From the NCBI GenBank assembly GCA_949361645.1, contig OX442416.1, positions 15,390,674 to 15,454,673 on the forward strand: a stretch of DNA of 64,000 nucleotides. The letters run 5' to 3'. Shown in pieces: positions 723 through 60,959 of this stretch (its first letter is position 1; each line of letters starts with the position of its first letter). The position numbers and the translations under genes are program-made. The stretch is from Spongilla lacustris (Eukaryota > Porifera > Demospongiae > Spongillida > Spongillidae). Below the pieces are notes generated by a model, which was given only the letters and a program-made list of their open reading frames with translations, made no database searches and had not been told where the DNA came from.

Positions 723-1944
723 TGTCACGCAAAAATTGTACCGGGCGAAAATTGTACCGCCCGGTACAATTTTCGCAACCAAAATTGTACCGGGCGGTAC
801 AATTTTGGTTGCGAAAAGTGTACCGGCCTTGCCAAACGTGTACTGGGTAGTGAGAAAGGACCGTTAGCTACATAGGATGTCAGATTACGTATTCTGCTAG
901 TTTAATACGTGTTGTACACAGTTCGCTGAAATAAAAACTTGAACCTACAGTTATACATGTATATAGTTGGTACTTCTATATCGTGCACTTCACTGAACAT
1001 AACATGCATCGGTATTGTAGGTGCAATACATTCCAAAGTAGCTATTTATTTTGCCAACATATCCAACCACTATGAATATGTTAGGCCAATGTAATAGTAT
1101 AAACTCAATGTACATGCCTGATGCCTCGGTCTGAATCACATTGCTGATTTTGACGAGGATTTTGATAACAGATATCGAATTATGATCTAGCCAATCATAT
1201 TTTCACACAAAAAAACAACACCCTGTTAGGCTGTTAAGCGTTAAATGAATATTTATACCAAATTTAGAAAGTGCATGTCATTTAGGCAAATTGCAATAAC
1301 TAATGAGTTGCATCCAAATGCAGCAGAGTCTGATGTGCTTATATCAGTTAAAAAGCTTAGCACCAATAGCAGGTACGTAGGCAAGGGCCCCCTCCCCCAG
1401 TTTTTTTGGGTACCCCTTTTAGTTTTATGTACATGTACAAGCTAGGGTTGTAGTACTGACTCGCTCTGTACACGAAGCACATTGGTACAGTACCGTCCAG
1501 AACCTATACATACATGTACACGTATGTAGTACATACGTGAAGAGGATAAAAAAATAATAGTCATTAATTTCCTGGGATATTGGGGCTCCGCCCCAGACTC
1601 CGGTGGGGGAGCTTACAGCGCTCCCCCATACCCCCTAGCTGTTGCAAGAGGGGGATCCGCCCCCTTTGTACCCACCGATCCATTTAGCCCCCCCCCCAGT
1701 TTTTCAACTTGTCCTGCTACGCGCCTGTATATATATACGCAATTCAGCAAACATCCCTTCGCAAGGTCTAACCGACAACTTACTTCTAGCTGGTTAAAGC
1801 TAACGGTACTTTATCACTACCCGGTACACTTTTGGCAAGGCCAGTACACTTTTCGCAACTAAAATTGTACCGGGCGGTACAATTTTGGTTGCGAAAAGTG
1901 TACCGGCCGGTACAATTTTCGCCCGGTACAATTTTTGCGTGACA
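723..1944. mobile_element. Non-autonomous TIR transposon with palindromic word-array ends
   Basis: The ends are TGTCACGC...GCGTGACA, followed inward by reiterated GGTACAATTTT / AAAATTGTACC words (about 730-835 and 1815-1935). These pair both within each end and between the two ends. The interior (about 850-1800) has no transposase frame, so mobility would depend on enzymes elsewhere. It is flanked by GTCC duplications and sits between the second Asp and the Glu of the host integrase. The outer breakpoint of the giant inverted duplication (1234) falls inside this element, so only its inner part recurs at 45207-45920. Confidence 0.8.
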
Positions 1945-1948
1945 GTCC
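1945..1948. repeat. 4-bp target site duplication, right copy (GTCC)
   Basis: Right partner of the GTCC at 719-722, directly after the GCGTGACA terminus of the transposon. Confidence 0.8.
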
Positions 1949-2213
1949 ACAATCAGTGTATTGAGAGGTTATGGAGAGATGTGTTTACACTGTGCACACA
2001 ATCTGTTCTATACCATGGAAGAGGAGGGGCTGCTAGATTGTGAAAATGAAGTACATGTCTGTTGTGTCTCCATTATGTATTTTTAAGTCGTATCGATAAT
2101 AGCTTACAAGTATTTAAGGAGGCATGGAATCAGCATCTTCTAAGTTCTGAAGGCAACCTTTCACCATGCCAGTTATGGATCAGGGGGAATCCAATACAGA
2201 AAACATACCTGAG
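1949..2213 (+). pseudogene. Integrase core, C-terminal half with catalytic Glu, frameshifted
   Basis: Continuing in frame from the interrupted half, the sequence reads HNQCIERLWRDVF. The Glu of ERLWRD is the third catalytic acid of the DDE integrase. Downstream, EEEGLLDCENEVHV appears in a second frame near 2022-2060, and LHYVFLSRIDNSLQVFKEAW in a third near 2065-2125, so at least two frameshifts have accumulated. The recognisable frame ends near ACCTGAG|GTATGG, a plausible splice donor at 2214. It is part of the left arm and recurs at 44938-45202. Confidence 0.75.
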
Positions 2214-2801
2214 GTATGGCATTTTTGATATTGGAAAAATTGTGCATACATTTTTAAATCACTAAAAACAAGACACAAGCATGTATAAACCAGATAGCTT
2301 ATAGGTGTCTGATGTTTCACACCTACCTAATAATTGTGTGTTTGTTAGCAGAACTCAGCATATGTGCAGCAATCTTATAACTTGCAGGCAATGCCTGTGG
2401 TCAAGACTTGACTGAAAAACTTCATTTCAACATTAGGCTACCTGACTTGCTGTGAAGTCCTCTCTACTGTCCCTCATCAGCATGTAGCATGGCCTTGATT
2501 GATGAATGTAGAATTTTATTTGAATGTATACACTCTAAAGTCATATAGTTTCGGCATGCAGCTGCAGAGCTCTGAAGCTGCATGCCGAAACTATATGACT
2601 TTACTGTATGGTGTTGCTATCAACACCATATACAACACCATACAGGTAATATATTGTATGCCTAATAGCTGGTTACTAAGACTTGCCCGCACAATAATAT
2701 GCTTACCCCAGCTATACTGTATACAGATATGACTTGAAGGGAAACAAATTTGGTACATATACTTACACACATGATTATGTGAATTATATATTGTTTTGCA
2801 G
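2214..2801 (+). other. Probable intron of the integrase remnant; contains a perfect hairpin
   Basis: It lies between the donor-like GTATGG at 2214 and the acceptor TTGTTTTGCAG ending at 2801. No coding signal was recognised. The only structure is the palindrome at 2536-2603. Joining the two flanking exons exactly at these sites gives an out-of-frame product, so either the sites are wrong or the frame has decayed. Confidence 0.4.
2536..2603. repeat. Perfect hairpin, 28-bp arms
   Basis: Positions 2536-2563 are the exact reverse complement of 2576-2603, with a 12-base loop whose centre (GAGCTC) is also palindromic. A shorter palindrome (TATGGTGTTG/CAACACCATA) follows at once near 2608-2631. The hairpin recurs in the right arm at 44548-44615. 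Confidence 0.9.
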
Positions 2802-3000
2802 GAGGATTTGAATACTTATGGTATCGACTGGAATGGTCCACTTGCTGTTTCGAGAAACGATGATGATTATGAAGTCACAGTACCTTATATTCAATTTATA
2901 GCTCCTTTACCAGATGGTGTATTACATGACTTGCAGGAAACTGTTCATCTTCTTGACCACAGTTGTAACCTTGTACATGACAGCTTTGCAATTTTTTAGT
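2802..3000 (+). pseudogene. Terminal exon of the integrase gene
   Basis: After a strong acceptor (TTGTTTTGCAG) the frame reads EDLNTYGIDWNGPLAVS, later VTVPYIQFIAPLPDGVLHDL and a final ...HDSFAIF before TAG. The YGIDWNGP and VTVP...PLPD pattern is the C-terminal tail typical of this animal integrase family. The exon itself is open to its stop, although the gene upstream is broken. A decayed second copy lies at 4951-5110, and the right-arm copy is at 44151-44349. Confidence 0.65.
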
Positions 3001-3934
3001 AGTAGATTGTGGAGAAAGATAATGCATGTGCATGAATGAAACCTTTTTTTTTCACCGTATTATTTCCTGCATGAAATATTGTCACGTAAAAGTTCATGGT
3101 TGTGGAGATACTATCGTTAAACACTGCCTTTTTTTCTTTCCTTTTTTTTTTTTTCATGGGAGGGGGCCTGGGTGTTGTACATCATGTGTATAGGGGCAAA
3201 ATTACAACACAAACCACTTTACATTCACTGTAAATTCATTTTGGGAATACTTTTTTTATGTTCATGCAATTACACAGTAATTTTACAGAGGTTTTTAAAA
3301 TTAAGTGGCTCAGTCCATTATTTCTTTTCTGGTGTATATAACCATGCTGTGGAGCAAGCCCGTTCTGAAGGCACATGCAGTCAAGGCTAAGATAGCTAGA
3401 TACTATACCATGCAGTTTGGTAACATAAGGGAAATAGAATTCACTACTCCATACGGTATCTCCCTCCCTCTCCCCTGCATGCAGCCCCACAGCATGATAC
3501 TGAGGACGGTTTATGTGTTGGTTCTTGTGTCACCAACAACGCAGCTTCAACTTGAAAACTGTGATTATTGACAAATAATTCGACAATGAAATATCGCGAT
3601 ATAGACGATATCGGCAAAGAACCATATCGCGGCAGCACTAGCTACAATACAATTCCCTTGAGTGATCGCTCAATATTTCCGAAACATCACCAGAAATTAA
3701 ATATATGGATACAAAACATTTTATTGTGTCTTGGCCTTGTAAAAGAACATATTAACATTAAATGGAGACACCAAATCTATCTACCTTGTATGAAATAATG
3801 GCTTCTTGTAGAATACAAATACAGTAAGATATCTGAAGCTTCCTCCACTATAGTGCCAGTGGTTGCACTATTGAAAACACTGATGAATGAGGAGGCTAAA
3901 TATGGGAAGGAGTAATCAAGGCAATACATGCATG
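3001..3934. other. Intergenic repeat-rich DNA, no gene recognised
   Basis: It contains T-rich runs near 3045 and 3135-3155 and low-complexity sequence. The left arm carries a 9-bp extra block (ATAGACGAT) near 3603 inside a palindromic ATATCGCGATAT context. This is the largest length difference found between the two arms. Confidence 0.5.
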
Positions 3935-4950
3935 CCTACATTTCAGCGATTGTCGAATGGAATAATTCAAAAACTGAGATTTCTTTGCATGTGAATGATG
4001 ATTTATTCTTAACTTGTCAGTAATTTTTTGGTCTCTTGGTTTGTAAAAAAAATTTTTAGAATCCACAATACATGTAATAGTACACAAAGTTCAATATACA
4101 TCATAATAAATAATTTTTACTGAAAACATGATAAAAATGTCACTTTGTTGTCCGTGTACAGGGATTGATTGCTGCTCCATCATCAAACCCTAGACCACAA
4201 TCGCCAATTTGTTGGTCTCTAATTAAATGATCCATTTTAGATACTACCCCCAAATAGCACTTTTAATGTCATAGCTATAGATCCCATTGTGACTAATTCT
4301 CTTGACTGGTATACTCTGAGGTATGAGTCTCATTCATAAATTCAAATTCAAAAAACCTTCATCAGTCCCTTGCAGCATGCATGGAGGTATACTTCTGAGA
4401 TGCACTTCAGTCTAGCTACTAGGATGCACTGCACTTCAAGCTGCTAGGATGAACTGTACTTCTAGCTGCTAGCTGATAATGCATGCAGCATAATATTTAA
4501 TTGTATGTGGAATAAACACCAAAGTAAAACTTTTGAGATGTGACTAGAATTACAGCGAGCTTATAACCTGCAGGGTTTGTATCCCAATGGCGCTGTGTAG
4601 ATATATGCAACCTACTTGCTATCAAGGCTCAACATATACTTCACTTAGGCCATGCACCAGATTTGCTGTGAGGTCTTTGTTGTCCGACTCCCACATGTAT
4701 ATGATGAATTTGACACTGGTCAGTGCGAGAAAGCAAGGGCCATGATACACTGAAAAACATACAGTCCTATATATAATATTCAGTGACCGTGTTTCGCATC
4801 CAAATGTATGTAATATTAACATGCAGTATCATTGTTTAAATTAAATTATGCATAATAAAATAGATATCTTACATCCCGTGTTACATGCGTATGATTACTT
4901 TGCATCGTATACGTGCATAATGTATTATCTTATACATGTATACATTGCAG

Positions 4951-5110
4951 GAGGATTTGAATATGTATATGGAATGGTCCACTTTCTGTTTCCAAACAAT
5001 AAAATGATGATTATGACTCGGTTTGACACAGTGTACAGCACGACTTACGTTCAACCTCTTAACAACCATAGCATTGCATTTGTCAGCTTTGCAGTGATAA
5101 ATTTGTTGAC
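4951..5110 (+). pseudogene. Decayed duplicate of the integrase terminal exon
   Basis: From a CAG acceptor at 4948-4950 the DNA reads GAGGATTTGAATA, then TGGAATGGTCCACTT, CTGTTTC and ATGATGATTATGA. These are the same landmarks in the same order as 2802-2875, with a short deletion that removes the YGID frame. It lies inside the unpaired centre of the inverted-repeat element at 3935-6018, so that element may have captured it. Right-arm copy at 42050-42209. Confidence 0.65.
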
Positions 5111-5822
5111 AGATAAGTGAATCGGTGATTAAATATTAATGTCAGCTTTGCAAGCTGTTACTAGACAATTGTGCCGGGTGAAAAAACAAGTGAATACATT
5201 GTATAATTGGGGGTGATTATGAAAAGGCCTCACAATGACACCATTAAGATACAATGGAAATGCACACATAAATTGAACACACAATCTTAGCAATAAGTAA
5301 ACTACACGTCTAGAAACAGTGCACATGACAAAGAGAAATGGACAATGGCTCAAGATCATGTTGGCATAATTATAACTGAACAGGACCTATGCATGGACCC
5401 AGCTCAATTGAGAAGAATCAATTCTATATTTTTATTGTTGATGGATCTTTTTGCATGGAATTGTTCCCAACTGATAACATATACAAGTAAGTACAAAAGC
5501 ATTCTTTAGAAAGTTGGTGATTTCAAAATTATCCTATATGTAGCTTATGATAAACTACAACTTGCTAAATATAGGGCTTTATTATTGTTCGACCCTTGTT
5601 TCGCAGTCTTTTATACTCCATCCTATAGCAGCTTGAAGTGCAGTAAATCTAGCAGCTAGAAGTGCATGCTTGACATCTCAAGTTAGTACTCTATAGAAGT
5701 ACCTCCATGCTTGCTAAAGGTTTTTTTTTTAATGAATTGAAACTCATCCCTACCAGTCGGGTCAAATGTGATGCCCATGGGATATAGCTATGACATTACA
5801 ATTTTTTTTTTTTTTTTGGGGT

Positions 5823-5853
<31 letters not shown>
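5823..5853. repeat. Poly-G tract (31 G) after a poly-T run
   Basis: A T-run, GGGG, T, then 31 consecutive G. The reverse-complement tract in the right arm (41307-41337) is also 31 bases long. That is notable because such runs normally change length quickly. Confidence 0.95.
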
Positions 5854-5854
<1 letters not shown>

Positions 5855-6062
5855 ATAGTATCTAAAATGAATTATTTAATTGCCCCAAAATTTTTGGTCC
5901 AGGACGATCATTATAAGACCAAAAACATGGTGACAAGTTGTTTTTTTATAATTATTCCTCATTCACAAATTAATCTCAATTTTTATATTGTTCCATTCTG
6001 AAATCACTGAAATGTAGGCTCGATACACCTCTTTTATGTACACATGCTTTGACATATAGTGC

Positions 6063-6278
6063 TGTCACGGAGGAAAGTGTCCGTCGGAGTAACTTGTCCT
6101 AACCGGACATTTTACTCCGGAGTAACCGGACGTTTTACTCCGGAGTAAATTGTCCTAACCGGATGTTTTACTCCGGAGTAAATTGTCCTAACCGGACGTT
6201 TTACTCCGGAGTAAATTGTCCTAACCGGACATTTTACTCTAGAGTAAATTGTCCCCCAACGGAGTAAGCGGTCCGACA
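6063..6278. mobile_element. Small TGTC...GACA element of ACTCCGGAGT words
   Basis: It begins TGTCACGGAGG and ends GCGGTCCGACA. In between, about 35-bp units repeat around the self-complementary ACTCCGGAGTAAA and TTGTCCTAACCGGAC words, alternating in orientation. There is no coding capacity. The organisation parallels the 723-1944 ends and the 62825-62957 element, although the words differ. No target duplication was identified. Right-arm copy at 40882-41097. Confidence 0.6.
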
Positions 6279-7144
6279 TTGTGCCGTAAATTTTGATTTC
6301 AAACTATACATAGTCCGCAGCCAGGTGGTGTAAGTTTTGAATCACTACACCGATAAAGGCGATAAGGATTAAGGAGCGCAGCTGGCTTTTCAGATATTGC
6401 ATGTGACTTATACTACAGCTGCTTAAATGGATGAGAGGACAGATGAACGAGGAACGAGAGTTTTCTGATGTCCACACTCCACAGGTACCCTGCGCCGCTA
6501 ATGAAAAGTGAATCCTTCCCTCGAAGAAAAGCAAACAGGTATGGATTGTCCACTTGTTAATACACTCCTGTTCAGTAGCACGAGTTACAACTGAGCAATA
6601 TTTTAATGCATGCATGCTTAGTGAAGTAGACTACTACGGAATAATTGTGTTTAATACTACAGAGTCAGAGTGGAAGTTTTTAAAAAGCAGTACAAGACAT
6701 GCAAAGAAAGGCATGTGGGTGGAAGTGATACTGAATCAGCAAACACCAGAGGAAGCAAATCATGAAGTCCTGCCACAGTGATCATACTGCTGGTTGGTAT
6801 CCTAGCTTATAAATAAGGTGTCAGAATTAACGTTTTTACTGGCCTAGCTGCATGACAGGTGGCAGCTGTTTTGGCATGTCCAGGGAAAGTGATTAGCATC
6901 AAAATGATAAAAGTTTAACAGCAAGAAGGGGAAAATGACCTGGCTTATTTTGCAACAGCTATAGCTCACCCGGCTAATATATGCAACATGGTCATTGTAT
7001 GTTTCAGCAGAGTGAAATTAGTCAGAATTTATCAAGAGGCCTTGAAGAACAGGTTCTCTCCATGTAAGTTTCCAGTGGAGAAAAATGAAAAGAAGAGTTA
7101 GTGTTAACTAGCTGAATTAACAACTGAGTATAGAAATTTTCTGA
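6279..7144. other. No gene recognised
   Basis: A 75-codon open frame on the plus strand (6554-6781) is the longest plausible coding stretch, but it matches nothing I recognise and has no flanking gene signals. The rest appears non-coding. Confidence 0.4.
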
Positions 7145-7274
7145 ATGCCTATTGACAAAAGGAAAATGATTGACTGTTCAGGATGCAAGGAGTGGTACCA
7201 CTGTGGACTGTGTGACGGATATTCTAGAAAGAGCCTCAAATGAGTTGGATTGTGTGTGGTCTTGTACTTCATGT
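7145..7274 (+). pseudogene. PHD-finger-like segment with one frameshift
   Basis: One frame reads MPIDKRKMIDCSGCKEWYHC. After a 1-nt shift near 7205 the continuation reads CVTDILERASNELDCVWSC and then TSC. Together these give the Cys-x2-Cys...Trp-Tyr-His-x2-Cys...Trp-x-Cys-x2-Cys spacing of the second half of a PHD zinc finger (the chromatin-reader fold). In the first frame a TGA follows at about 7242. The last Cys codon overlaps a GTAAGT, so the segment may be an exon end. It is a fragment only, with no upstream zinc ligands found nearby. Right-arm copy at 39886-40015. Confidence 0.5.
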
Positions 7275-9560
7275 AAGTGATGAAACTGAATATGAATACT
7301 GACCTATATAGCTCATAAACATTGATTGTGATACTGCTCATTCCTGTCCTTGATGTATTAATTTATGTTATGGCAGTTCATATTGAAATCATAGGGCACA
7401 TCAATTCGTGGCGAAGAGCAAACTGTCCTGGGACAAATTTAATTCCTTGGCCTATGAGTTAGTTCAGAATTTAACTGACATCTATACTTTACGAAACTTG
7501 TATAGGTCATGAGGGTAAATTGTCCCCCCCCCCCTCCCCCCCGTATAGAATGTAACTACATTCCACACTAGGATGACTCGCCCGATTGTTTTCCTATACT
7601 GTTCTTCCTGCCTACAGCGTTCTCATTATGTCATCCAAACTAATAACATCTGCACAGCTGAACAGTGATGATAATGATAGCTCATTACTGAAGTACGTGT
7701 CTCAATAATAAAAAAGCACTATCAAACAAGATCTTTATTAGTTAATCAGCTCACAATTTTTATAATTTGCTAATCTTTAGCCGATAAGGTGAAGTGCATG
7801 CAGAAGGCATATTAATCTATTATTGGGACACATATCATGCTAAGTAAAGGCAGGCGGTGAAATGTCTGCATCCGAATGTTTCTTATAATATTATTCAGTA
7901 CCGTTTGAATGGGACATACTGGCAACATTTTTGGTCAAGGAAAGCTGATGCTTACAAGCAATATAGATTATTAAATTTATAAATCATATGGATTATGCTA
8001 AATAACAAAACTGATTAATGGATCAGGGAATTACCTATATACCAATCAACACTGTCAGAGGATGTAACAGTAAGTGGCAATTACTTCCAATGCGTGTGTG
8101 TATTTTCCGTAACTGATCAGTAATTACATGTAAGCTTAAGGTTCATCTTCGCTACTTGTTTTAACACTCCATGCAACATGGGGGATTTAGGCGGTACAGG
8201 TTGCAATATTTCTATCTTCATATCACTGAACAGGCTTGGGTAGTAAAAGGACATCCAAGTTTGGGAATAACCTTTGCATTATATAACCTTATTCCTGAAG
8301 TATGCCAGGCACGACAAACAATGTGAATTTGTGTTTATGTGACATTAGTATATACACTCAGACTATATGGATCCTATTTATCTCAATATATTTCAGACTC
8401 TCATATCAGATTTCAGCCATGCATTATATATATATTTTTAATGAAATGCTCGTGTATGTGCTAAGTAATGCTTTCAACTGGTGAGAATTTAAAGAACAAG
8501 AGCTCCACTTGCTGAGTACAGTGTGTGATACGAAAATACCACCAGTCCACCACTTCATACCCATATCATATTGGGGTTGCATAAAAGGTTTCCCAGCTTT
8601 GAAATAAATGTAATATATTAATATGCACAAGTAGGTTACCAGAATACAATGTTAAGTAGCAAGTAGATTGTGATATTATTTATCTTGGCGCGAATTATTG
8701 GCCAGCGTTTAGCTACTAGTACTGACTATGAATCTATGACACCGGCTCATTCAAGGCCTTTTTAAAAATCATCTTTTTATATTGCTTCGAAACTTGCCTA
8801 AACTTTAAATAGCAAGTTTGCTCCATAGTTGTTAACGTTTGACATCAGTCATGACATGAACTGTTCAACGTTTTATCCGAAACTACTTACCAGCATCAAA
8901 TGAATTCACCGTAGACCACAAAGCCACGTGCGCGTATTAAAATGGCGTCGCGACAACAACAAACGCTCGCAGTCCGACCTGGCAGACCAGGGTGCGAAAA
9001 GCACTTGAACACTGCAGAAATACTCCGTTGTGGAAATTTGAAGTCATCATTAAGACGGTGCATGATGAAACCCGAGCTCACAGCGACGTAATTGGTATTA
9101 ACGTGTTTTTAAAATATTAACAGATGACGAGGAAAGGGGCTCAGATTTGTTTGTGGATCTGATCACATGCAACATCAGGGCTCAATATGGATGTGGCTTT
9201 GCTATGACGTAAGTCAAGCGCATGTAAGAAACAGTGGTTGTTCTGAAAGATGAAATGGGGAGAGCTAGAGAGAGCGGGAGGGAAGACACGTGGTATTACC
9301 TTGATTTACGTGCATTATTCCCCTTCATTCATTTCACTATGTAAGGTGCTGCACTATTTGTGTACTGCACGTAGCAGTAGGGTTTCTGAGCTAAGCTTCT
9401 GCTGATCATTACCCATGCAATGCAACAACATAGTTGATTACATCATTTCTGTGTTGTTTGGAAGTTAGGTGTTCTATTTCAGTTTGGGGAGGCTGTATGA
9501 CATTGATGAGCAATGTGGGTTGCATGGTAGAAGCACATGCAACTATCATTGTGTGCTATC
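7275..9560. other. No gene recognised; one CACGTG/AAAATGGCG promoter-like spot
   Basis: The sequence is mostly AT-rich without recognisable coding content, with a C-rich run near 7527-7545. Near 8928-8960 a CACGTG and an AAAATGGCG (YY1-like context) precede a short 48-codon frame beginning MASRQQQTLAVRPGRPG. That could be a first exon or chance. Confidence 0.35.
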
Positions 9561-9587
9561 TCTGGTCTGATGTCATCCTAATCTCTT

Positions 9588-9611
9588 CCCCCCCCCCCCC
9601 CCCCCCCCCCC
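9588..9611. repeat. Poly-C tract (24 C)
   Basis: An uninterrupted C-run. The matching G-run in the right arm (37549-37572) has the same length, as for the 31-base run at 5823. Confidence 0.9.
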
Positions 9612-9639
9612 TTAGGAGATGAATTTGATGCTGTGTCAG

Positions 9640-9830
9640 TGTAGGGCATGGGGTCCACCTACAGCATTGTGAACTTTCAGTGTGCATCAAAGTCAGGCTA
9701 CACAACACAAGTTGATGCCCACTGAGTGTGTGTGTGGGACTGTTGTGGATATGAGGATGGTAAGTGTTCTGTGTGGGGAAGCTATGTGATATATTGTATA
9801 TGATGCATGTGTGAGGTATCATCATTTGTG
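9640..9830 (+). repeat. Dispersed repeat unit, copy 1
   Basis: It shares ordered blocks with 13260-13470: GTGTAGGG...GTCCACCTA...CATTGT, GTGGATATGAG, GTGTGGGGAAGCT, GTGTGATA-type and GGTGCATGTGTGA-type words. The blocks are rotated relative to each other, so this is a decayed tandem or dispersed repeat rather than a simple copy. A third partial block lies near 9861-9893 and a fourth near 13518-13540. Confidence 0.5.
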
Positions 9831-10271
9831 CAATTGTGTGATATTCTGTATCGAAATGAATTTGATGTGTAGGGCATGTGGTCCACCTTTGAGTTATTAA
9901 GTGTGTGGACGAAAGTTGCTAAACGTGAACGAGACAGCACTTGCGAGTAACTTTAACGTGAACAAGACAGCACTCTTGTGGGTACTCACTTGTGCTTGCG
10001 TACATGCATATCAGTACTTTTTAACCAAGCCATGTAACTTATTACTTACGCATATGCATATTGTTTATGCTGCATGCATATTAACCGCTAGAATTTTCAC
10101 CTGCACCAAGTGCAGGTATAAGTATTGGGCTACCTGCGTGCTGAAAAAAGCAGCCTGTATATTTCAAACCCTGTAAATTCTACTAAGGGGGGCTCAAAGC
10201 TCCACACGCGCACATACTGGCCAGACTGTCCATGCAGCATGGGTCATGTCCTCACCAAGGCAATAGTTAGC

Positions 10272-11188
10272 TCTTTGACTTGGATTCACTAAATGGTATA
10301 CAGCGAGTGAAGGAATACATACATCATATGGGACAGTTTCCGAGAAAATAGCCCTTCGTTTATGATTATAAAATCTTATAAAATTGCTTTGCATTTGAAT
10401 CATAATAACTTCTGAATGGTTAAGGCTATCGACTTCCTATTTTCAACACTTTGTACCACACCATTTCTCTGGTAAAATACATTTTGGGGTCTTGCACTTG
10501 CTCCGTGCCAGTATTGCAACGTCCGATACCCCACCGGGTTCAAACCCGCCATAACTTTCTGTAGGAGTAATCAAATCACTTCAAATTAGGTTTGTAGGTA
10601 GAGAGGTCCTATATCTATCGATTTGTTATGCCATCCGTTACGAAGATACATTTGAACAAACTACGTGCACGTTTTCCTGCTTGATTCACGCCAATGTTAT
10701 AATCCCCGCCTCCCCATACATTGAGCGGAATGCAATTTGCCCAAATCAGTAGTGTGAATCGAGCGCAAAAATGTGCACATTGTTTGTTCAATTGTATCTC
10801 CGTAACGGATGGATAAAAATTAACAAACAGAACAAATAGATAGATATAGGACCTCTCTATCTACAAACCAAATTTGAAGCAATTTGATTACTCCTACAGA
10901 AAGTTATGGCGGGTTTGAACCCAGTGGGGTATCGGACGTTGCAATACTGGCGCGGAGCAAGTGCAAGACCCCAAAATGTATTTTACTGTAGAGAAATGGT
11001 GTGGTACGAAGTGTTGAAAATAGGAAGTCGATAGCCTTAACCGTTCAGAAGTTATTATGATTCAAATGCAAAGCAATTTTATAAGATTTTATAATCATAA
11101 ACGAAGGGCTATTTTCTCGGAAACTGTCCCATATGATGTATGTATTCCTTCACTCGCTGTATACCATTTAGTGAATCCAAGTCAAAGA
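10272..11188. mobile_element. Near-perfect foldback element, 917 bp
   Basis: It begins TCTTTGACTTGGATTCAC and ends with its reverse complement GTGAATCCAAGTCAAAGA. The two halves (about 430 bp each) are nearly perfect reverse complements meeting around 10720. The matched pairs include TCCGATACCCCAC with GTGGGGTATCGGA and AGAGAGGTCCTATATCTAT with its complement. Inner differences such as TCTCTGGTAAAAT versus TCTCTACAGTAAAAT show that the halves have begun to diverge. No coding frame. Right-arm copy at 35972-36888. Confidence 0.85.
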
Positions 11189-13259: not shown

Positions 13260-13470
13260 GTGCCAGACTGTGGATATGAGAATAGCAGGTGTTCAGTGTG
13301 GGGAAGCTGTGTGATGAACCTTGTATATGGTGCATGTGTGACAGAGTAGAAGCATACAATGTATGCAATCTCTTGTGTGATGTCATCTTATTCACCCCCT
13401 CCTCTCCCGCACAAACAGTGTTGGTGTAGGGAATTGAGTCCACCTATAACATTGTATGTTGTGACCTGCT
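13260..13470 (+). repeat. Dispersed repeat unit, copy 2
   Basis: Partner of 9640-9830. The shared blocks include GTGGATATGAGAATAG, TGTGGGGAAGCTGTGTGATG, ATATGGTGCATGTGTGA, GTGTAGGG and GTCCACCTATA. The right-arm copy is around 33690-33900. Confidence 0.5.
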
Positions 13471-16509: not shown

Positions 16510-16735
16510 TGTAACGAGATGGCACCACCCAAATACGAGACGGCACGACCCGAATACGAGATGGCACGACCCGAATACGAGACAGCACGACCCGAATACG
16601 AGATGGCGCGACCCTATGGGGGGTGATCACTGCCATAATTCGACACGCGCTCGCTTTTCGTATTCGGGTCGCGCCATCTCGTATTCGGGTCGTGCTGTCT
16701 CGTATTCGGGTCGTGCCATCTCGTATTCGCACAGC
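16510..16735. repeat. 21-bp word array folding into a large hairpin at the arm/spacer junction
   Basis: About five 21-bp units (ACGAGATGGCACGACCCGAAT-like) run to 16615. After an unpaired stretch of about 45 bp they recur as the reverse complement (ATTCGGGTCGTGCCATCTCG-like, three units) at about 16658-16729. Only the first two units exist on the right-arm side (30607-30647). The left/right match breaks at 16553/30607, and both sides then share CACAGCG (16730-16736; reverse complement at 30600-30606). Confidence 0.8.
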
Positions 16736-16736
16736 G

Positions 16737-17242: not shown

Positions 17243-17285
<43 letters not shown>

Positions 17286-35900: not shown

Positions 35901-35971
35901 GTATTATTTTTTCTCTGCATTTTAGGTCTATGACGGTCACACTACTCACCATCAATTATGTACAACCAATG

Positions 35972-36888
35972 TCTTTGACTTGGATTCACTAAATGGTATA
36001 CAGCGAGTGAAGGAATACATACATCATATGGGACAGTTTCCGAGAAAATAGCCCTTCGTTTATGATTATAAAATCTTATAAAATTGCTTTGCATTTGAAT
36101 CATAATAACTTCTGAACGGTTAAGGCTATCGACTTCCTATTTTCAACACTTCGTACCACACCATTTCTCTACAGTAAAATACATTTTGGGGTCTTGCACT
36201 TGCTCCGCGCCAGTATTGCAACGTCCGATACCCCACTGGGTTCAAACCCGCCATAACTTTCTGTAGGAGTAATCAAATTGCTTCAAATTTGGTTTGTAGA
36301 TAGAGAGGTCCTATATCTATCTATTTGTTCTGTTTGTTAATTTTTATCCATCCGTTACGGAGATACAATTGAACAAACAATGTGCACATTTTTGCGCTCG
36401 ATTCACACTACTGATTTGGGCAAATTGCATTCCGCTCAATGTATGGGGAGGCGGGGATTATAACATTGGCGTGAATCAAGCAGGAAAACGTGCACGTAGT
36501 TTGTTCAAATGTATCTTCGTAACGGATGGCATAACAAATCGATAGATATAGGACCTCTCTACCTACAAACCTAATTTGAAGTGATTTGATTACTCCTACA
36601 GAAAGTTATGGCGGGTTTGAACCCGGTGGGGTATCGGACGTTGCAATACTGGCACGGAGCAAGTGCAAGACCCCAAAATGTATTTTACCAGAGAAATGGT
36701 GTGGTACAAAGTGTTGAAAATAGGAAGTCGATAGCCTTAACCATTCAGAAGTTATTATGATTCAAATGCAAAGCAATTTTATAAGATTTTATAATCATAA
36801 ACGAAGGGCTATTTTCTCGGAAACTGTCCCATATGATGTATGTATTCCTTCACTCGCTGTATACCATTTAGTGAATCCAAGTCAAAGA
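35972..36888. mobile_element. Right-arm copy of the 917-bp foldback element
   Basis: Mirror copy of 10272-11188 with identical length. It is flanked here by AATG on one side and GCTAACTATTG on the other, as expected from inversion of the left-arm flanks. Confidence 0.85.
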
Positions 36889-39885
36889 GCTAACTATTGC
36901 CTTGGTGAGGACATGACCCATGCTGCATGGACAGTCTGGCCAGTATGTGCGCGTGTGGAGCTTTGAGCCCCCCTTAGTAGAATTTACAGGGTTTGAAATA
37001 TACAGGCTGCTTTTTTCAGCACGCAGGTAGCCCAATACTTATACCTGCACTTGGTGCAGGTGAAAATTCTAGCGGTTAATATGCATGCAGCATAAACAAT
37101 ATGCATATGCGTAAGTAATAAGTTACATGGCTTGGTTAAAAAGTACTGATATGCATGTACGCAAGCACAAGTGAGTACCCACAAGAGTGCTGTCTTGTTC
37201 ACGTTAAAGTTACTCGCAAGTGCTGTCTCGTTCACGTTTAGCAACTTTCGTCCACACACTTAATAACTCAAAGGTGGACCACATGCCCTACACATCAAAT
37301 TCATTTCGATACAGAATATCACACAATTGCACAAATGATGATACCTCACACATGCATCATATACAATATATCACATAGCTTCCCCACACAGAACACTTAC
37401 CATCCTCATATCCACAACAGTCCCACACACACACTCAGTGGGCATCAACTTGTGTTGTGTAGCCTGACTTTGATGCACACTGAAAGTTCACAATGCTGTA
37501 GGTGGACCCCATGCCCTACACTGACACAGCATCAAATTCATCTCCTAAGGGGGGGGGGGGGGGGGGGGGGGGAAGAGATTAGGATGACATCAGACCAGAG
37601 ATAGCACACAATGATAGTTGCATGTGCTTCTACCATGCAACCCACATTGCTCATCAATGTCATACAGCCTCCCCAAACTGAAATAGAACACCTAACTTCC
37701 AAACAACACAGAAATGATGTAATCAACTATGTTGTTGCATTGCATGGGTAATGATCAGCAGAAGCTTAGCTCAGAAACCCTACTGCTACGTGCAGTACAC
37801 AAATAGTGCAGCACCTTACATAGTGAAATGAATGAAGGGGAATAATGCACGTAAATCAAGGTAATACCACGTGTCTTCCCTCCCGCTCTCTCTAGCTCTC
37901 CCCATTTCATCTTTCAGAACAACCACTGTTTCTTACATGCGCTTGACTTACGTCATAGCAAAGCCACATCCATATTGAGCCCTGATGTTGCATGTGATCA
38001 GATCCACAAACAAATCTGAGCCCCTTTCCTCGTCATCTGTTAATATTTTAAAAACACGTTAATACCAATTACGTCGCTGTGAGCTCGGGTTTCATCATGC
38101 ACCGTCTTAATGATGACTTCAAATTTCCACAACGGAGTATTTCTGCAGTGTTCAAGTGCTTTTCGCACCCTGGTCTGCCAGGTCGGACTGCGAGCGTTTG
38201 TTGTTGTCGCGACGCCATTTTAATACGCGCACGTGGCTTTGTGGTCTACGGTGAATTCATTTGATGCTGGTAAGTAGTTTCGGATAAAACGTTGAACAGT
38301 TCATGTCATGACTGATGTCAAACGTTAACAACTATGGAGCAAACTTGCTATTTAAAGTTTAGGCAAGTTTCGAAGCAATATAAAAAGATGATTTTTAAAA
38401 AGGCCTTGAATGAGCCGGTGTCATAGATTCATAGTCAGTACTAGTAGCTAAACGCTGGCCAATAATTCGCGCCAAGATAAATAATATCACAATCTACTTG
38501 CTACTTAACATTGTATTCTGGTAACCTACTTGTGCATATTAATATATTACATTTATTTCAAAGCTGGGAAACCTTTTATGCAACCCCAATATGATATGGG
38601 TATGAAGTGGTGGACTGGTGGTATTTTCGTATCACACACTGTACTCAGCAAGTGGAGCTCTTGTTCTTTAAATTCTCACCAGTTGAAAGCATTACTTAGC
38701 ACATACACGAGCATTTCATTAAAAATATATATATAATGCATGGCTGAAATCTGATATGAGAGTCTGAAATATATTGAGATAAATAGGATCCATATAGTCT
38801 GAGTGTATATACTAATGTCACATAAACACAAATTCACATTGTTTGTCGTGCCTGGCATACTTCAGGAATAAGGTTATATAATGCAAAGGTTATTCCCAAA
38901 CTTGGATGTCCTTTTACTACCCAAGCCTGTTCAGTGATATGAAGATAGAAATATTGCAACCTGTACCGCCTAAATCCCCCATGTTGCATGGAGTGTTAAA
39001 ACAAGTAGCGAAGATGAACCTTAAGCTTACATGTAATTACTGATCAGTTACGGAAAATACACACACGCATTGGAAGTAATTGCCACTTACTGTTACATCC
39101 TCTGACAGTGTTGATTGGTATATAGGTAATTCCCTGATCCATTAATCAGTTTTGTTATTTAGCATAATCCATATGATTTATAAATTTAATAATCTATATT
39201 GCTTGTAAGCATCAGCTTTCCTTGACCAAAAATGTTGCCAGTATGTCCCATTCAAACGGTACTGAATAATATTATAAGAAACATTCGGATGCAGACATTT
39301 CACCGCCTGCCTTTACTTAGCATGATATGTGTCCCAATAATAGATTAATATGCCTTCTGCATGCACTTCACCTTATCGGCTAAAGATTAGCAAATTATAA
39401 AAATTGTGAGCTGATTAACTAATAAAGATCTTGTTTGATAGTGCTTTTTTATTATTGAGACACGTACTTCAGTAATGAGCTATCATTATCATCACTGTTC
39501 AGCTGTGCAGATGTTATTAGTTTGGATGACATAATGAGAACGCTGTAGGCAGGAAGAACAGTATAGGAAAACAATCGGGCGAGTCATCCTAGTGTGGAAT
39601 GTAGTTACATTCTATACGGGGGGGAGGGGGGGGGGGACAATTTACCCTCATGACCTATACAAGTTTCGTAAAGTATAGATGTCAGTTAAATTCTGAACTA
39701 ACTCATAGGCCAAGGAATTAAATTTGTCCCAGGACAGTTTGCTCTTCGCCACGAATTGATGTGCCCTATGATTTCAATATGAACTGCCATAACATAAATT
39801 AATACATCAAGGACAGGAATGAGCAGTATCACAATCAATGTTTATGAGCTATATAGGTCAGTATTCATATTCAGTTTCATCACTT

Positions 39886-40015
39886 ACATGAAGTACAAGA
39901 CCACACACAATCCAACTCATTTGAGGCTCTTTCTAGAATATCCGTCACACAGTCCACAGTGGTACCACTCCTTGCATCCTGAACAGTCAATCATTTTCCT
40001 TTTGTCAATAGGCAT
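39886..40015 (-). pseudogene. Right-arm copy of the frameshifted PHD-like segment
   Basis: Mirror copy of 7145-7274, carrying the same 1-nt frameshift. The lesion therefore predates the duplication, or both arms derive from one source sequence. Confidence 0.5.
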
Positions 40016-40881
40016 TCAGAAAATTTCTATACTCAGTTGTTAATTCAGCTAGTTAACACTAACTCTTCTTTTCATTTTTCTCCACTGGAAACTTACATGG
40101 AGAGAACCTGTTCTTCAAGGCCTCTTGATAAATTCTGACTAATTTCACTCTGCTGAAACATACAATGACCATGTTGCATATATTAGCCGGGTGAGCTATA
40201 GCTGTTGCAAAATAAGCCAGGTCATTTTCCCCTTCTTGCTGTTAAACTTTTATCATTTTGATGCTAATCACTTTCCCTGGACATGCCAAAACAGCTGCCA
40301 CCTGTCATGCAGCTAGGCCAGTAAAAACGTTAATTCTGACACCTTATTTATAAGCTAGGATACCAACCAGCAGTATGATCACTGTGGCAGGACTTCATGA
40401 TTTGCTTCCTCTGGTGTTTGCTGATTCAGTATCACTTCCACCCACATGCCTTTCTTTGCATGTCTTGTACTGCTTTTTAAAAACTTCCACTCTGACTCTG
40501 TAGTATTAAACACAATTATTCCGTAGTAGTCTACTTCACTAAGCATGCATGCATTAAAATATTGCTCAGTTGTAACTCGTGCTACTGAACAGGAGTGTAT
40601 TAACAAGTGGACAATCCATACCTGTTTGCTTTTCTTCGAGGGAAGGATTCACTTTTCATTAGCGGCGCAGGGTACCTGTGGAGTGTGGACATCAGAAAAC
40701 TCTCGTTCCTCGTTCATCTGTCCTCTCATCCATTTAAGCAGCTGTAGTATAAGTCACATGCAATATCTGAAAAGCCAGCTGCGCTCCTTAATCCTTATCG
40801 CCTTTATCGGTGTAGTGATTCAAAACTTACACCACCTGGCTGCGGACTATGTATAGTTTGAAATCAAAATTTACGGCACAA

Positions 40882-41097
40882 TGTCGGACCGCTTACTCCG
40901 TTGGGGGACAATTTACTCTAGAGTAAAATGTCCGGTTAGGACAATTTACTCCGGAGTAAAACGTCCGGTTAGGACAATTTACTCCGGAGTAAAACATCCG
41001 GTTAGGACAATTTACTCCGGAGTAAAACGTCCGGTTACTCCGGAGTAAAATGTCCGGTTAGGACAAGTTACTCCGACGGACACTTTCCTCCGTGACA
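40882..41097. mobile_element. Right-arm copy of the TGTC...GACA ACTCCGGAGT-word element
   Basis: Mirror copy of 6063-6278, same length and same word order. Confidence 0.6.
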
Positions 41098-41141
41098 GCA
41101 CTATATGTCAAAGCATGTGTACATAAAAGAGGTGTATCGAG

Positions 41142-41305
41142 CCTACATTTCAGTGATTTCAGAATGGAACAATATAAAAATTGAGATTAATTTGTGAATG
41201 AGGAATAATTATAAAAAAACAACTTGTCACCATGTTTTTGGTCTTATAATGATCGTCCTGGACCAAAAATTTTGGGGCAATTAAATAATTCATTTTAGAT
41301 ACTAT

Positions 41306-41337
<32 letters not shown>

Positions 41338-43225
41338 ACCCCAAAAAAAAAAAAAAAATTGTAATGTCATAGCTATATCCCATGGGCATCACATTTGACC
41401 CGACTGGTAGGGATGAGTTTCAATTCATTAAAAAAAAAACCTTTAGCAAGCATGGAGGTACTTCTATAGAGTACTAACTTGAGATGTCAAGCATGCACTT
41501 CTAGCTGCTAGATTTACTGCACTTCAAGCTGCTATAGGATGGAGTATAAAAGACTGCGAAACAAGGGTCGAACAATAATAAAGCCCTATATTTAGCAAGT
41601 TGTAGTTTATCATAAGCTACATATAGGATAATTTTGAAATCACCAACTTTCTAAAGAATGCTTTTGTACTTACTTGTATATGTTATCAGTTGGGAACAAT
41701 TCCATGCAAAAAGATCCATCAACAATAAAAATATAGAATTGATTCTTCTCAATTGAGCTGGGTCCATGCATAGGTCCTGTTCAGTTATAATTATGCCAAC
41801 ATGATCTTGAGCCATTGTCCATTTCTCTTTGTCATGTGCACTGTTTCTAGACGTGTAGTTTACTTATTGCTAAGATTGTGTGTTCAATTTATGTGTGCAT
41901 TTCCATTGTATCTTAATGGTGTCATTGTGAGGCCTTTTCATAATCACCCCCAATTATACAATGTATTCACTTGTTTTTTCACCCGGCACAATTGTCTAGT
42001 AACAGCTTGCAAAGCTGACATTAATATTTAATCACCGATTCACTTATCTGTCAACAAATTTATCACTGCAAAGCTGACAAATGCAATGCTATGGTTGTTA
42101 AGAGGTTGAACGTAAGTCGTGCTGTACACTGTGTCAAACCGAGTCATAATCATCATTTTATTGTTTGGAAACAGAAAGTGGACCATTCCATATACATATT
42201 CAAATCCTCCTGCAATGTATACATGTATAAGATAATACATTATGCACGTATACGATGCAAAGTAATCATACGCATGTAACACGGGATGTAAGATATCTAT
42301 TTTATTATGCATAATTTAATTTAAACAATGATACTGCATGTTAATATTACATACATTTGGATGCGAAACACGGTCACTGAATATTATATATAGGACTGTA
42401 TGTTTTTCAGTGTATCATGGCCCTTGCTTTCTCGCACTGACCAGTGTCAAATTCATCATATACATGTGGGAGTCGGACAACAAAGACCTCACAGCAAATC
42501 TGGTGCATGGCCTAAGTGAAGTATATGTTGAGCCTTGATAGCAAGTAGGTTGCATATATCTACACAGCGCCATTGGGATACAAACCCTGCAGGTTATAAG
42601 CTCGCTGTAATTCTAGTCACATCTCAAAAGTTTTACTTTGGTGTTTATTCCACATACAATTAAATATTATGCTGCATGCATTATCAGCTAGCAGCTAGAA
42701 GTACAGTTCATCCTAGCAGCTTGAAGTGCAGTGCATCCTAGTAGCTAGACTGAAGTGCATCTCAGAAGTATACCTCCATGCATGCTGCAAGGGACTGATG
42801 AAGGTTTTTTGAATTTGAATTTATGAATGAGACTCATACCTCAGAGTATACCAGTCAAGAGAATTAGTCACAATGGGATCTATAGCTATGACATTAAAAG
42901 TGCTATTTGGGGGTAGTATCTAAAATGGATCATTTAATTAGAGACCAACAAATTGGCGATTGTGGTCTAGGGTTTGATGATGGAGCAGCAATCAATCCCT
43001 GTACACGGACAACAAAGTGACATTTTTATCATGTTTTCAGTAAAAATTATTTATTATGATGTATATTGAACTTTGTGTACTATTACATGTATTGTGGATT
43101 CTAAAAAATTTTTTTACAAACCAAGAGACCAAAAAATTACTGACAAGTTAAGAATAAATCATCATTCACATGCAAAGAAATCTCAGTTTTTGAATTATTC
43201 CATTCGACAATCGCTGAAATGTAGG
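41142..43225. mobile_element. Right-arm copy of the 2.1-kb inverted-repeat element
   Basis: Mirror copy of 3935-6018. It includes the 31-base homopolymer (41307-41337) and the decayed terminal-exon copy at 42050-42209. Confidence 0.6.
42050..42209 (-). pseudogene. Right-arm copy of the decayed integrase terminal exon
   Basis: Mirror of 4951-5110, with the same lesions. Confidence 0.6.
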
Positions 43226-44150
43226 CATGCATGTATTGCCTTGATTACTCCTTCCCATATTTAGCCTCCTCATTCATCAGTGTTTTCAATAGTGCAACCA
43301 CTGGCACTATAGTGGAGGAAGCTTCAGATATCTTACTGTATTTGTATTCTACAAGAAGCCATTATTTCATACAAGGTAGATAGATTTGGTGTCTCCATTT
43401 AATGTTAATATGTTCTTTTACAAGGCCAAGACACAATAAAATGTTTTGTATCCATATATTTAATTTCTGGTGATGTTTCGGAAATATTGAGCGATCACTC
43501 AAGGGAATTGTATTGTAGCTAGTGCTGCCGCGATATGGTTCTTTGCCGATATCGCGATATTTCATTGTCGAATTATTTGTCAATAATCACAGTTTTCAAG
43601 TTGAAGCTGCGTTGTTGGTGACACAAGAACCAACACATAAACCGTCCTCAGTATCATGCTGTGGGGCTGCATGCAGGGGAGAGGGAGGGAGATACCGTAT
43701 AGAGTAGTGAATTCTATTTCCCTTATGTTACCAAACTGCATGGTATAGTATCTAGCTATCTTAGCCTTGACTGCATGTGCCTTCAGAACGGGCTTGCTCC
43801 ACAGCATGGTTATATACACCAGAAAAGAAATAATGGACTGAGCCACTTAATTTTAAAAACCTCTGTAAAATTACTGTGTAATTGCATGAACATAAAAAAA
43901 GTATTCCCAAAATGAATTTACAGTGAATGTAAAGTGGTTTGTGTTGTAATTTTGCCCCTATACACATGATGTACAACACCCAGGCCCCCTCCCATGAAAA
44001 AAAAAAAAAGGAAAGAAAAAAAGGCAGTGTTTAACGATAGTATCTCCACAACCATGAACTTTTACGTGACAATATTTCATGCAGGAAATAATACGGTGAA
44101 AAAAAAAGGTTTCATTCATGCACATGCATTATCTTTCTCCACAATCTACT

Positions 44151-44349
44151 ACTAAAAAATTGCAAAGCTGTCATGTACAAGGTTACAACTGTGGTCAAGA
44201 AGATGAACAGTTTCCTGCAAGTCATGTAATACACCATCTGGTAAAGGAGCTATAAATTGAATATAAGGTACTGTGACTTCATAATCATCATCGTTTCTCG
44301 AAACAGCAAGTGGACCATTCCAGTCGATACCATAAGTATTCAAATCCTC
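44151..44349 (-). pseudogene. Right-arm copy of the integrase terminal exon
   Basis: Mirror of 2802-3000. The translated tail is unchanged from the left copy. Confidence 0.65.
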
Positions 44350-44547
44350 CTGCAAAACAATATATAATTCACATAATCATGTGTGTAAGTATATGTACCA
44401 AATTTGTTTCCCTTCAAGTCATATCTGTATACAGTATAGCTGGGGTAAGCATATTATTGTGCGGGCAAGTCTTAGTAACCAGCTATTAGGCATACAATAT
44501 ATTACCTGTATGGTGTTGTATATGGTGTTGATAGCAACACCATACAG

Positions 44548-44615
44548 TAAAGTCATATAGTTTCGGCATGCAGCTTCAGAGCTCTGCAGCTGCATGCCGA
44601 AACTATATGACTTTA
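44548..44615. repeat. Right-arm copy of the perfect 28-bp-arm hairpin
   Basis: Mirror of 2536-2603. Confidence 0.9.
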
Positions 44616-44937
44616 GAGTGTATACATTCAAATAAAATTCTACATTCATCAATCAAGGCCATGCTACATGCTGATGAGGGACAGTAGAGAGGACTTCACA
44701 GCAAGTCAGGTAGCCTAATGTTGAAATGAAGTTTTTCAGTCAAGTCTTGACCACAGGCATTGCCTGCAAGTTATAAGATTGCTGCACATATGCTGAGTTC
44801 TGCTAACAAACACACAATTATTAGGTAGGTGTGAAACATCAGACACCTATAAGCTATCTGGTTTATACATGCTTGTGTCTTGTTTTTAGTGATTTAAAAA
44901 TGTATGCACAATTTTTCCAATATCAAAAATGCCATAC

Positions 44938-45202
44938 CTCAGGTATGTTTTCTGTATTGGATTCCCCCTGATCCATAACTGGCATGGTGAAAGGTTGCCT
45001 TCAGAACTTAGAAGATGCTGATTCCATGCCTCCTTAAATACTTGTAAGCTATTATCGATACGACTTAAAAATACATAATGGAGACACAACAGACATGTAC
45101 TTCATTTTCACAATCTAGCAGCCCCTCCTCTTCCATGGTATAGAACAGATTGTGTGCACAGTGTAAACACATCTCTCCATAACCTCTCAATACACTGATT
45201 GT
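44938..45202 (-). pseudogene. Right-arm copy of the integrase Glu-motif half (no N-terminal half)
   Basis: Mirror of 1949-2213, with the same two frameshifts. The N-terminal half is absent on this side because the arm stops inside the transposon, so this copy is an orphan fragment. Confidence 0.7.
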
Positions 45203-45206
45203 GGAC

Positions 45207-45920
45207 TGTCACGCAAAAATTGTACCGGGCGAAAATTGTACCGGCCGGTACACTTTTCGCAACCAAAATTGTACCGCCCGGTACAATTTTAGTTGCGAAA
45301 AGTGTACTGGCCTTGCCAAAAGTGTACCGGGTAGTGATAAAGTACCGTTAGCTTTAACCAGCTAGAAGTAAGTTGTCGGTTAGACCTTGCGAAGGGATGT
45401 TTGCTGAATTGCGTATATATATATACAGGCGCGTAGCAGGACAAGTTGAAAAACTGGGGGGGGGGGCTAAATGGATCGGTGGGTACAAAGGGGGCGGATC
45501 CCCCTCTTGCAACAGCTAGGGGGTATGGGGGAGCGCTGTAAGCTCCCCCACCGGAGTCTGGGGCGGAGCCCCAATATCCCAGGAAATTAATGACTATTAT
45601 TTTTTTATCCTCTTCACGTATGTACTACATACGTGTACATGTATGTATAGGTTCTGGACGGTACTGTACCAATGTGCTTCGTGTACAGAGCGAGTCAGTA
45701 CTACAACCCTAGCTTGTACATGTACATAAAACTAAAAGGGGTACCCAAAAAAACTGGGGGAGGGGGCCCTTGCCTACGTACCTGCTATTGGTGCTAAGCT
45801 TTTTAACTGATATAAGCACATCAGACTCTGCTGCATTTGGATGCAACTCATTAGTTATTGCAATTTGCCTAAATGACATGCACTTTCTAAATTTGGTATA
45901 AATATTCATTTAACGCTTAA
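45207..45920. mobile_element. Truncated right-arm copy of the 723-1944 transposon
   Basis: It holds one TIR end (TGTCACGC with the GGTACAATTTT words, 45207-45340) and interior sequence up to the arm boundary at 45920. The opposite end and its GTCC duplication are missing. Confidence 0.8.
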
Positions 45921-46130: not shown

Positions 46131-46161
<31 letters not shown>

Positions 46162-60955: not shown

Positions 60956-60959
60956 AAAT

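What the first reader, a model, noticed from the sequence alone, without database searches (positions are those of the whole stretch)
1234..45920. 44.7-kb inverted duplication: 15.3-kb near-identical arms around a 14-kb repeat-rich spacer
Every landmark from 1234 to 16553 has its reverse-complement partner at a constant coordinate sum (47151-47160), with only three short indels and a few substitutions noticed. Arms this long and this similar are uncommon in animal autosomes. If real they can extrude, undergo gene conversion or invert the spacer; if not, they are an assembly fold-back.
Basis: seen in the sequence. Interest (0 to 1): 0.8.

Follow-up and report, generated by a model that had tools for sequence, protein, structure and literature searches.

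The report
Tail-to-tail transposon pair split by another
The huge mirror-image repeat is two almost identical copies of one large jumping gene lying tail to tail, pushed apart when an unrelated jumping gene landed exactly where they meet; it is nested mobile DNA and very unlikely to be an assembly fold-back.

Summary
The repeat is real: arms 1234-16553 and 30607-45920, three substitutions, three indels, 12.3 kb identical. Arms and 'spacer' are mobile DNA. The arms are two tail-to-tail copies of an ~18-kb transposon ('R') fitting IS3EU: rva_4 integrase fragments, TATGGGG...CCCCATA ends, ~430-bp inverted termini, exact 6-bp target duplications in 22 of 40 end pairs (control 1 of 1560). The spacer 16730-30606 is another transposon ('T'): 29 of 33 end pairs carry an exact 3-bp duplication (control 29 of 1056); here TCG, and removing T plus one TCG restores an intact R terminus. 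A fold-back cannot give T in one arm only. Both arms share an insertion junction found nowhere else in the genome and differ 0.03%, against 1.1-1.5% from four other copies: siblings. Best reading: one copy inserted into the other's terminus, T came later, and the right copy lost its 5' end at a 5-bp microhomology. R often does this: 31 of 139 examined termini abut R's own terminal sequence. Reads were not available.

The parts
1..16614 (+). Left copy of transposon R (IS3EU type); its 5' terminus lies 1.2 kb left of the window at -1223 (locus L035), about 17.8 kb in all; its 3' terminal repeat stops at ...GCGCGACCC (16614), 51 bp short of a full terminus
467..847 (+). Open frame with the first half of the rva_4 integrase core (PF24764, E 5.9e-27)
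   Evidence: (C2:15391155-15391403)
2050..2262 (+). Open frame with the last part of the rva_4 integrase core (PF24764, E 9.9e-12)
723..1944 (.). 1.2-kb nested insertion with about 148-bp inverted ends (TGTCACGC...GCGTGACA) and the 4-bp repeat GTCC at both sides; it splits the integrase core; also present in the copy at C2:41771-60196; the right arm ends inside it
10272..11188 (.). 0.9-kb self-complementary (88%) stretch, also present in other R copies
14721..15670 (.). 950-bp MITE-like insertion (40 places scored genome-wide, both arms included); its left junction with R was found only in the two arms
16263..16614 (-). 3' terminal inverted repeat of the left R copy, with 21-bp minisatellite (CGTATTCGGGTCGTGCCATCT type)
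16615..16729 (+). Outermost 115 bp of the RIGHT R copy's 3' terminal repeat, terminus TATGGGGGGTGATCACTGCC at 16615, cut off from its body by T
16727..16729 (.). Target duplication TCG of T (left); partner at 30607-30609
16730..30606 (+). Transposon T (ends CACAGCG...CGCTGTG, 3-bp target duplication), the 'spacer'; EnSpm/CACTA-like by ends and duplication only
16934..24538 (.). 7.6-kb element U nested in T (ends CTCAGGGCAGTTAAGGC, 2-bp repeat GA); absent from the T copy at C1:9500540
17755..23631 (.). 5.9-kb 24-bp minisatellite inside U
25126..27303 (.). 143-bp tandem array inside T
30607..45920 (-). Right copy of transposon R, inverted; 3' end complete once T is removed, 5' end lost
45916..45920 (.). 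CTTAA, 5-bp microhomology between R and host at the truncation; host sequence starts at 45921 (paralogue C2:15528311-15528858, 84%)

Best explanation
SHOWN: the arms are two copies, tail to tail, of one ~18-kb DNA transposon (R, IS3EU type). The spacer is a different transposon (T) that inserted later, with a TCG target duplication, into the terminal repeat of the right copy. INFERRED: the two R copies are siblings. One copy, moved by an integrase supplied in trans (the integrase core in the arms is split by a nested insertion), landed next to the motif GGGTCG in the other's 3' terminal repeat, on the sister chromatid or homologue. This made a palindrome with ~15.4-kb arms and a 51-bp centre. 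Its centre may have inverted afterwards by recombination between arms (or the assembler oriented it so). T then hit the centre, and at some point the right copy's 5' end was lost by a microhomology-mediated deletion. It works as mobile DNA; no sign of a host function was seen. Split confidence: two R copies plus T insertion 0.95; sibling self-insertion 0.6; centre inversion 0.45 (lowered from 0.5 on checking, because the terminus variant I had counted for it is common at both ends).
For: Arm multicopy. The left copy has a complete 5' terminus (L035) and a 3' terminal repeat lacking its last 51 bp. R copies elsewhere have exact 6-bp target duplications in 22 of 40 pairs against 1 of 1560 mispaired. 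rva_4 integrase fragments. T: 19 stretches begin at spacer base 1 and 17 end at its last base; exact 3-bp duplication in 29 of 33 pairs against 29 of 1056 mispaired. Removing T and one TCG gives a terminal repeat of 405 bp that aligns over its full length with R termini in L027 (97.1%), L031 (94.7%) and L030 (90.5%), over 1-390 in L032 (90.5%) and over 86-405 in L028 (99.7%). The MITE junction is found at exactly 2 places in the genome at up to 3 mismatches, the two arms. Arms 0.03% apart by substitution; four other copies 1.1-1.5% from the left arm. Centre and left end share the GGGTCG footprint at the same position of the R terminus. 31 of 139 R termini abut R's own terminal sequence (controls 20 of 5000 and 8 of 2780), four of these with an exact 6-bp duplication. 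CTTAA microhomology.
Against: The 5' end and far-side target duplication of the right copy are missing, so its insertion cannot be proved end to end. 18 of 40 R pairs and 4 of 33 T pairs show no exact duplication. GGGTCG|TATGGGG also occurs at C22:3026074, so two independent insertions at that spot are possible instead of one insertion plus centre inversion. The copy at C21 is 99.9% identical to the arms over their last 883 bp, so the arms are not everywhere far closer to each other than to other copies. Some junctions counted as self-insertion are short terminal stubs that may have moved with the element (for example C4:6799976-6817772, outer flanks GAGGGG/GAGGGA), so 31 junctions stand for fewer events. 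No reads were available.
Confidence: 0.85

Rival explanations
1. Assembly fold-back or false duplication: one molecule was read or joined back on itself, or two haplotypes were joined tail to tail.
For: Palindromes are hard to assemble; 12.3 kb of the arms is identical. The C5:7693925-7728134 pair elsewhere in the assembly has 435 of 435 identical inverted flanking bases, so fold-backs may exist in this assembly.
Against: A fold-back copies everything beyond the turn: T, 115 bp from the turn in one arm, would be present in both arms, but is in one. The turn lies exactly at the R terminus. Outer flanks differ, and the host side at 45921 is matched by a paralogue without R next to it. Arms differ by a 9-bp indel and three substitutions. 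No gap lies in the structure.
Confidence: 0.04
2. Replication-based inverted duplication: the 3' end of R, cut at its terminus by transposase or stalled at its inverted repeat, switched template within the terminal repeat and copied 15.3 kb of the element backwards, then rejoined host DNA by microhomology; T inserted later.
For: Explains in one event why the right copy is near-identical, carries the private MITE and ends inside R at a 5-bp microhomology.
Against: The turn is exactly at the R terminus TATGGGG after the GGGTCG motif, the form of an R insertion; 31 of 139 listed R termini abut R terminal sequence, four with full 6-bp duplications, so insertion there is a documented habit of R.
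Confidence: 0.25
3. Two unrelated R insertions in opposite orientation, later made identical by gene conversion between the palindrome arms.
For: Other inverted R pairs exist at lower identity (the stretch C3:12488650-12495627 is self-complementary over 7.0 kb at 92%); differences cluster at the outer end of the arms.
Against: Identity holds right up to the outer break, where conversion tracts would rarely end; the MITE is shared and its junction private.
Confidence: 0.12
4. One reading: a host segmental inverted duplication with an unrelated spacer.
For: Constant coordinate sum and high identity; another inverted pair with identical flanks occurs in the assembly (C5).
Against: Arms are R, spacer is T, and both families have these ends at many other loci.
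Confidence: 0.03

Closest known systems
[quoted passage not shown] passages read)
   Same: TA..TA termini (R: TATGG...CCATA, fitting the TAYGG..CCRTA given for fungal TET+ families), 6-bp target duplications, DDD/E integrase-like core, terminal inverted repeats over 30 bp
   Different: R is about 18 kb with ~430-bp terminal repeats built partly on 21-bp tandem repeats; no TET/JBP or alpha-kinase domain was listed for the 20 of 44 frames scanned; its place in the transposase tree was not tested
Nested and double Ds elements of maize (PMC3260210, passages read; double-Ds structure recalled)
   Same: One transposon inserted in another of its kind, giving in the double Ds a long inverted repeat
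   Different: That paper calls nesting rarer for Ds and reports no double Ds in B73; R abuts its own terminal sequence at 31 of 139 listed termini
Tn10 target-site channelling and Sleeping Beauty/piggyBac autointegration (PMC3952818, passages read)
   Same: A transposon directed into itself, for Tn10 near its own inverted repeats
   Different: Tn10 is bacterial, and Sleeping Beauty largely avoided its repeats in that study; R's events are seen only as finished junctions and no mechanism is tested
P-element self-insertions and multimers (PMC4744444, passages read)
   Same: Copies of a transposon hitting an existing copy
   Different: The mapped example shown there lies in a marker gene, not in terminal repeats
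EnSpm/CACTA transposons (recalled)
   Same: T begins with CAC and makes 3-bp duplications
   Different: No transposase found in two frames scanned; termini CACAG rather than CACTA/CACTG

Membership tests
IS3EU (element R) | TA..TA termini | tested here: met
   TATGGGGGGTGANCACTGCCAT at 191 exact places (152, 39; N is A or T in the 139 listed); paired copies carry it at both ends
IS3EU (element R) | 6-bp target site duplication | tested here: met
   22 of 40 paired ends exact, 0 at 5 or 7 bp; mispaired control 1 of 1560; some termini serve in two pairs
IS3EU (element R) | DDD/E integrase-type transposase core | tested here: met
   PF24764 rva_4, E 5.9e-27 and 9.9e-12; that rva_4 is the IS3EU transposase is inference
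IS3EU (element R) | Transposase groups with IS3EU/GingerRoot in a tree | not tested
   no reference IS3EU transposases were fetched
Polinton/Maverick (considered for R) | 6-bp target duplication | tested here: met
Polinton/Maverick (considered for R) | DNA polymerase B, capsid, protease, ATPase genes (recalled) | tested here: inconclusive
   none in the 20 of 44 frames of 70 aa or more that were scanned against Pfam; other frames and intron-split genes not scanned
EnSpm/CACTA (element T) | 3-bp target duplication | tested here: met
   29 of 33 pairs; control 29 of 1056
EnSpm/CACTA (element T) | CAC termini in inverted repeat (recalled criterion) | tested here: met
   CACAGCG at both ends
EnSpm/CACTA (element T) | EnSpm-type transposase | tested here: inconclusive
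   two frames of T (24572-24952, 28422-28778) scanned, no Pfam match; longer T copies not read
Host inverted segmental duplication | arms consist of host DNA with breakpoints unrelated to mobile-element ends | tested here: not met

The most novel reading that the evidence does not exclude
R's terminal repeats act as landing pads for R itself. The 21-bp tandem repeats and terminus attract R insertions (31 of 139 listed termini abut R terminal sequence, several hundred times the share expected from the length of these repeats), so the family builds long palindromes and stacked ends at its own loci, and composites with stacked ends can move again as a unit. This would be a self-targeting IS3EU lineage that keeps making large recombinogenic inverted repeats in its host's chromosomes.
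Probability: 0.4. Interest if true: 0.6.

Novelty: new member of a known kind. Interest (0 to 1): 0.42.

Why it matters
It replaces an apparent 44.7-kb host rearrangement by an ordered stack of nested mobile elements. It also warns that long, near-identical inverted repeats in an assembly can be self-inserted transposons rather than fold-backs. If R's self-insertion habit holds up, it gives a natural eukaryotic case for studying why some transposons hit their own ends and how palindromes arise and persist.

Tried and rejected
Rejected: fold-back artefact (T asymmetry) and host segmental duplication (arms and spacer are multicopy transposons). Polinton is not favoured: no matching genes in the frames scanned. 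The idea that the arms are complete independent insertions was dropped because the right copy lacks its 5' end and both arms share a private MITE junction. The missing 5' end of the right copy was sought in the right flank and not found within 45921-64000. Pfam on 20 R frames found only the integrase above cut-off; weak hits were below cut-off. A paralogue of the right flank (L038) showed where host DNA starts but not the empty site: the ~490 bp just left of it match nothing in -4999 to 64000, and farther left it matches window 54112-55189. The terminus variant TGATCAC was first taken as a 3'-end mark supporting centre inversion; it is the commoner variant in the listed termini and also occurs at 5' ends (L018, L022, L025), so it carries little weight. 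Literature searches (listings of 10 to 25 papers each) gave analogies; no listed title or abstract start describes self-insertion of IS3EU, which is a statement about those listings only. Passages of PMC9604107 and PMC4168063 were read and not used. The pattern was only meant to learn about the genome.
Full report
Searches recover one inverted repeat, 1234-16553 against 30607-45920, with three substitutions, three indels and 12.3 kb of perfect identity. The only N gap in the window is at 58218-58417, outside the structure.

The arms are mobile DNA. A search of the window's own genome (248.6 Mb, 51 contigs, unnamed) with the left arm gives 51 matching stretches on C1, C2, C3, C11, C17 and C21 (12 of 7694 candidates were scored). 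The copy at C2:41771-60196 continues beyond the outer end of the arm (its own 3' end is cut short), and the copy at C3:12492127-12512540 continues beyond both ends. With 5 kb of sequence left of the window (L035), the left copy runs from -1223 to 16614, about 17.8 kb, with ~430-bp inverted termini carrying 21-bp tandem repeats. The terminus is TATGGGGGGTGANCACTGCCAT; exact copies occur at 191 places (152, of which 100 are listed, and 39). Of 40 pairs of facing ends in the 139 listed sites, 22 have an exact 6-bp target duplication against 1 of 1560 mispaired combinations; 18 do not, and some termini serve in two pairs. Pieces of an rva_4 integrase (PF24764) lie at 467-847 and 2050-2262; the core is split by a 1.2-kb nested insertion (723-1944, 4-bp repeat GTCC). 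The genome gives 151 rva_4 matches (150 of 422 candidates scored; many are exons, and some belong to other families), while none of 14 control genomes gives any. TA..TA ends, usually 6-bp duplications and an integrase-type core are published marks of IS3EU (PMC10045372, passages), and TAYGG..CCRTA ends are given for fungal TET+ families (PMC12730594, passages). A transposase tree was not made.

The spacer is a different transposon. The search with 16730-30606 (19 of 761 candidates scored) gives 19 stretches that begin at its first base and 17 that end at its last base. Patterns for the two ends with 8 flanking bases give 50 and 45 places (first flanking base not T). Of 33 pairs, 29 carry an exact 3-bp duplication, against 29 of 1056 in mispaired controls, and none matches over 4 bp. 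In the window the duplication is TCG at 16727-16729 and 30607-30609. Removing T and one TCG restores a continuous R terminus that aligns over its full 405 bp with three of five termini compared and over most of it with the other two, and that matches the left copy at 299 of 300 positions. So the right copy's true end is at 16615. T itself carries a nested 7.6-kb element (16934-24538) that is absent from the copy at C1:9500540; it contains the 5.9-kb minisatellite that made the spacer look repeat-rich.

Before T, therefore, the locus was a palindrome with ~15.4-kb arms and a 51-bp centre. A fold-back artefact is argued out by T: it lies 115 bp from the end of one arm and is absent from the other.

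Origin of the second copy. Both arms carry a 950-bp MITE at the same site, and that junction occurs at exactly two places in the genome, the two arms, at up to 3 mismatches. By substitution the arms differ 0.03%, while four other copies differ 1.1-1.5% from the left arm; one of them, C21, is however 99.9% identical over the last 883 bp. One arm most likely descends directly from the other. At the centre the right copy's terminus abuts GGGTCG of the left copy's terminal repeat; at the left end the left copy abuts a 57-bp piece of an R terminus that stops at the same GGGTCG. One insertion into the terminal repeat with a GGGTCG duplication, followed by inversion of the centre, explains both ends; two insertions at the same spot would too, and the spot is used elsewhere (C22:3026074). 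The 57-bp piece has the TGATCAC variant seen at all five 3' ends read in fetched copies (L027, L028, L030, L031, L032), which the single-insertion model requires, but that variant is also found at 5' ends and is the commoner one, so this is weak support.

The right copy is broken at 45920 inside the nested insertion. A paralogue of the right flank at C2:15528311 shows that host and R share CTTAA at the break, a microhomology junction. Deletion after insertion and termination of a backward copying event both fit.

R abuts itself often. Of 139 listed termini, 31 have 12 flanking bases that match R's own terminal repeat with at most one mismatch, against 20 of 5000 random 12-mers and 8 of 2780 shuffles. 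Four of the 31 have an exact 6-bp duplication across the element (C2:9756022, C3:10750315, C6:9320421, C6:6287553). On a rough estimate of 191 termini of 430 bp this is several hundred times expectation. Some of these junctions are short stubs that may have moved together with the element, and some may be copies of one event, so events are fewer than junctions. Similar habits are described for Tn10 (as told in PMC3952818), P elements (PMC4744444) and Ds (PMC3260210); passages were read in each.

Noticed in passing
C5:7693925-7728134 of the same genome (L041, L042): Another inverted pair: T copies at 7694324 (+) and 7727702 (-) have identical flanks, 435 of 435 bases identical in reverse complement, about 28 of them T itself. 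A real host inverted duplication or an assembly fold-back.
   Followed up: partly
C3:4187494/4231756 and C22:4476394/4486505: T ends with identical 8-base flanks in opposite orientation 44 kb and 10 kb apart; possible further inverted duplications. C1:6775075/6906353 is a same-strand pair.
   Followed up: no
C4:6799976-6817772: An R copy with a second terminus stub at each end and outer flanks GAGGGG/GAGGGA: a composite that may have moved as a unit by its outer ends.
   Followed up: partly
window 54112-55189: Locally repeated sequence, 88-95% identical to several places at C2:15.33-15.56 Mb, perhaps a local gene family.
   Followed up: no
window 51922-53685: A dispersed stretch of up to 1.7 kb, 78-86% identical to places on C4, C17, C19, C11, C2 and C3.
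   Followed up: no
window 56749-57777: A dispersed 1-kb stretch with inverted ends, 85-90% identical to more than twenty places in the genome (self-match).
   Followed up: no
window 17755-23631: 5.9-kb 24-bp minisatellite with extreme strand bias (GC skew about -0.84) and three overlapping open frames of about 2000 codons on the + strand, as a repeat unit divisible by 3 can give.
   Followed up: no
window 58218-58417: The only assembly gap (200 N), close to a poly-C run at 58450-58480.
   Followed up: no
C2:12087188 and C4:5838781: rva_4 integrases with long open frames (483 codons) and near full-length domain matches, unlike the split copies in R: other families with this integrase seem present.
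   Followed up: no
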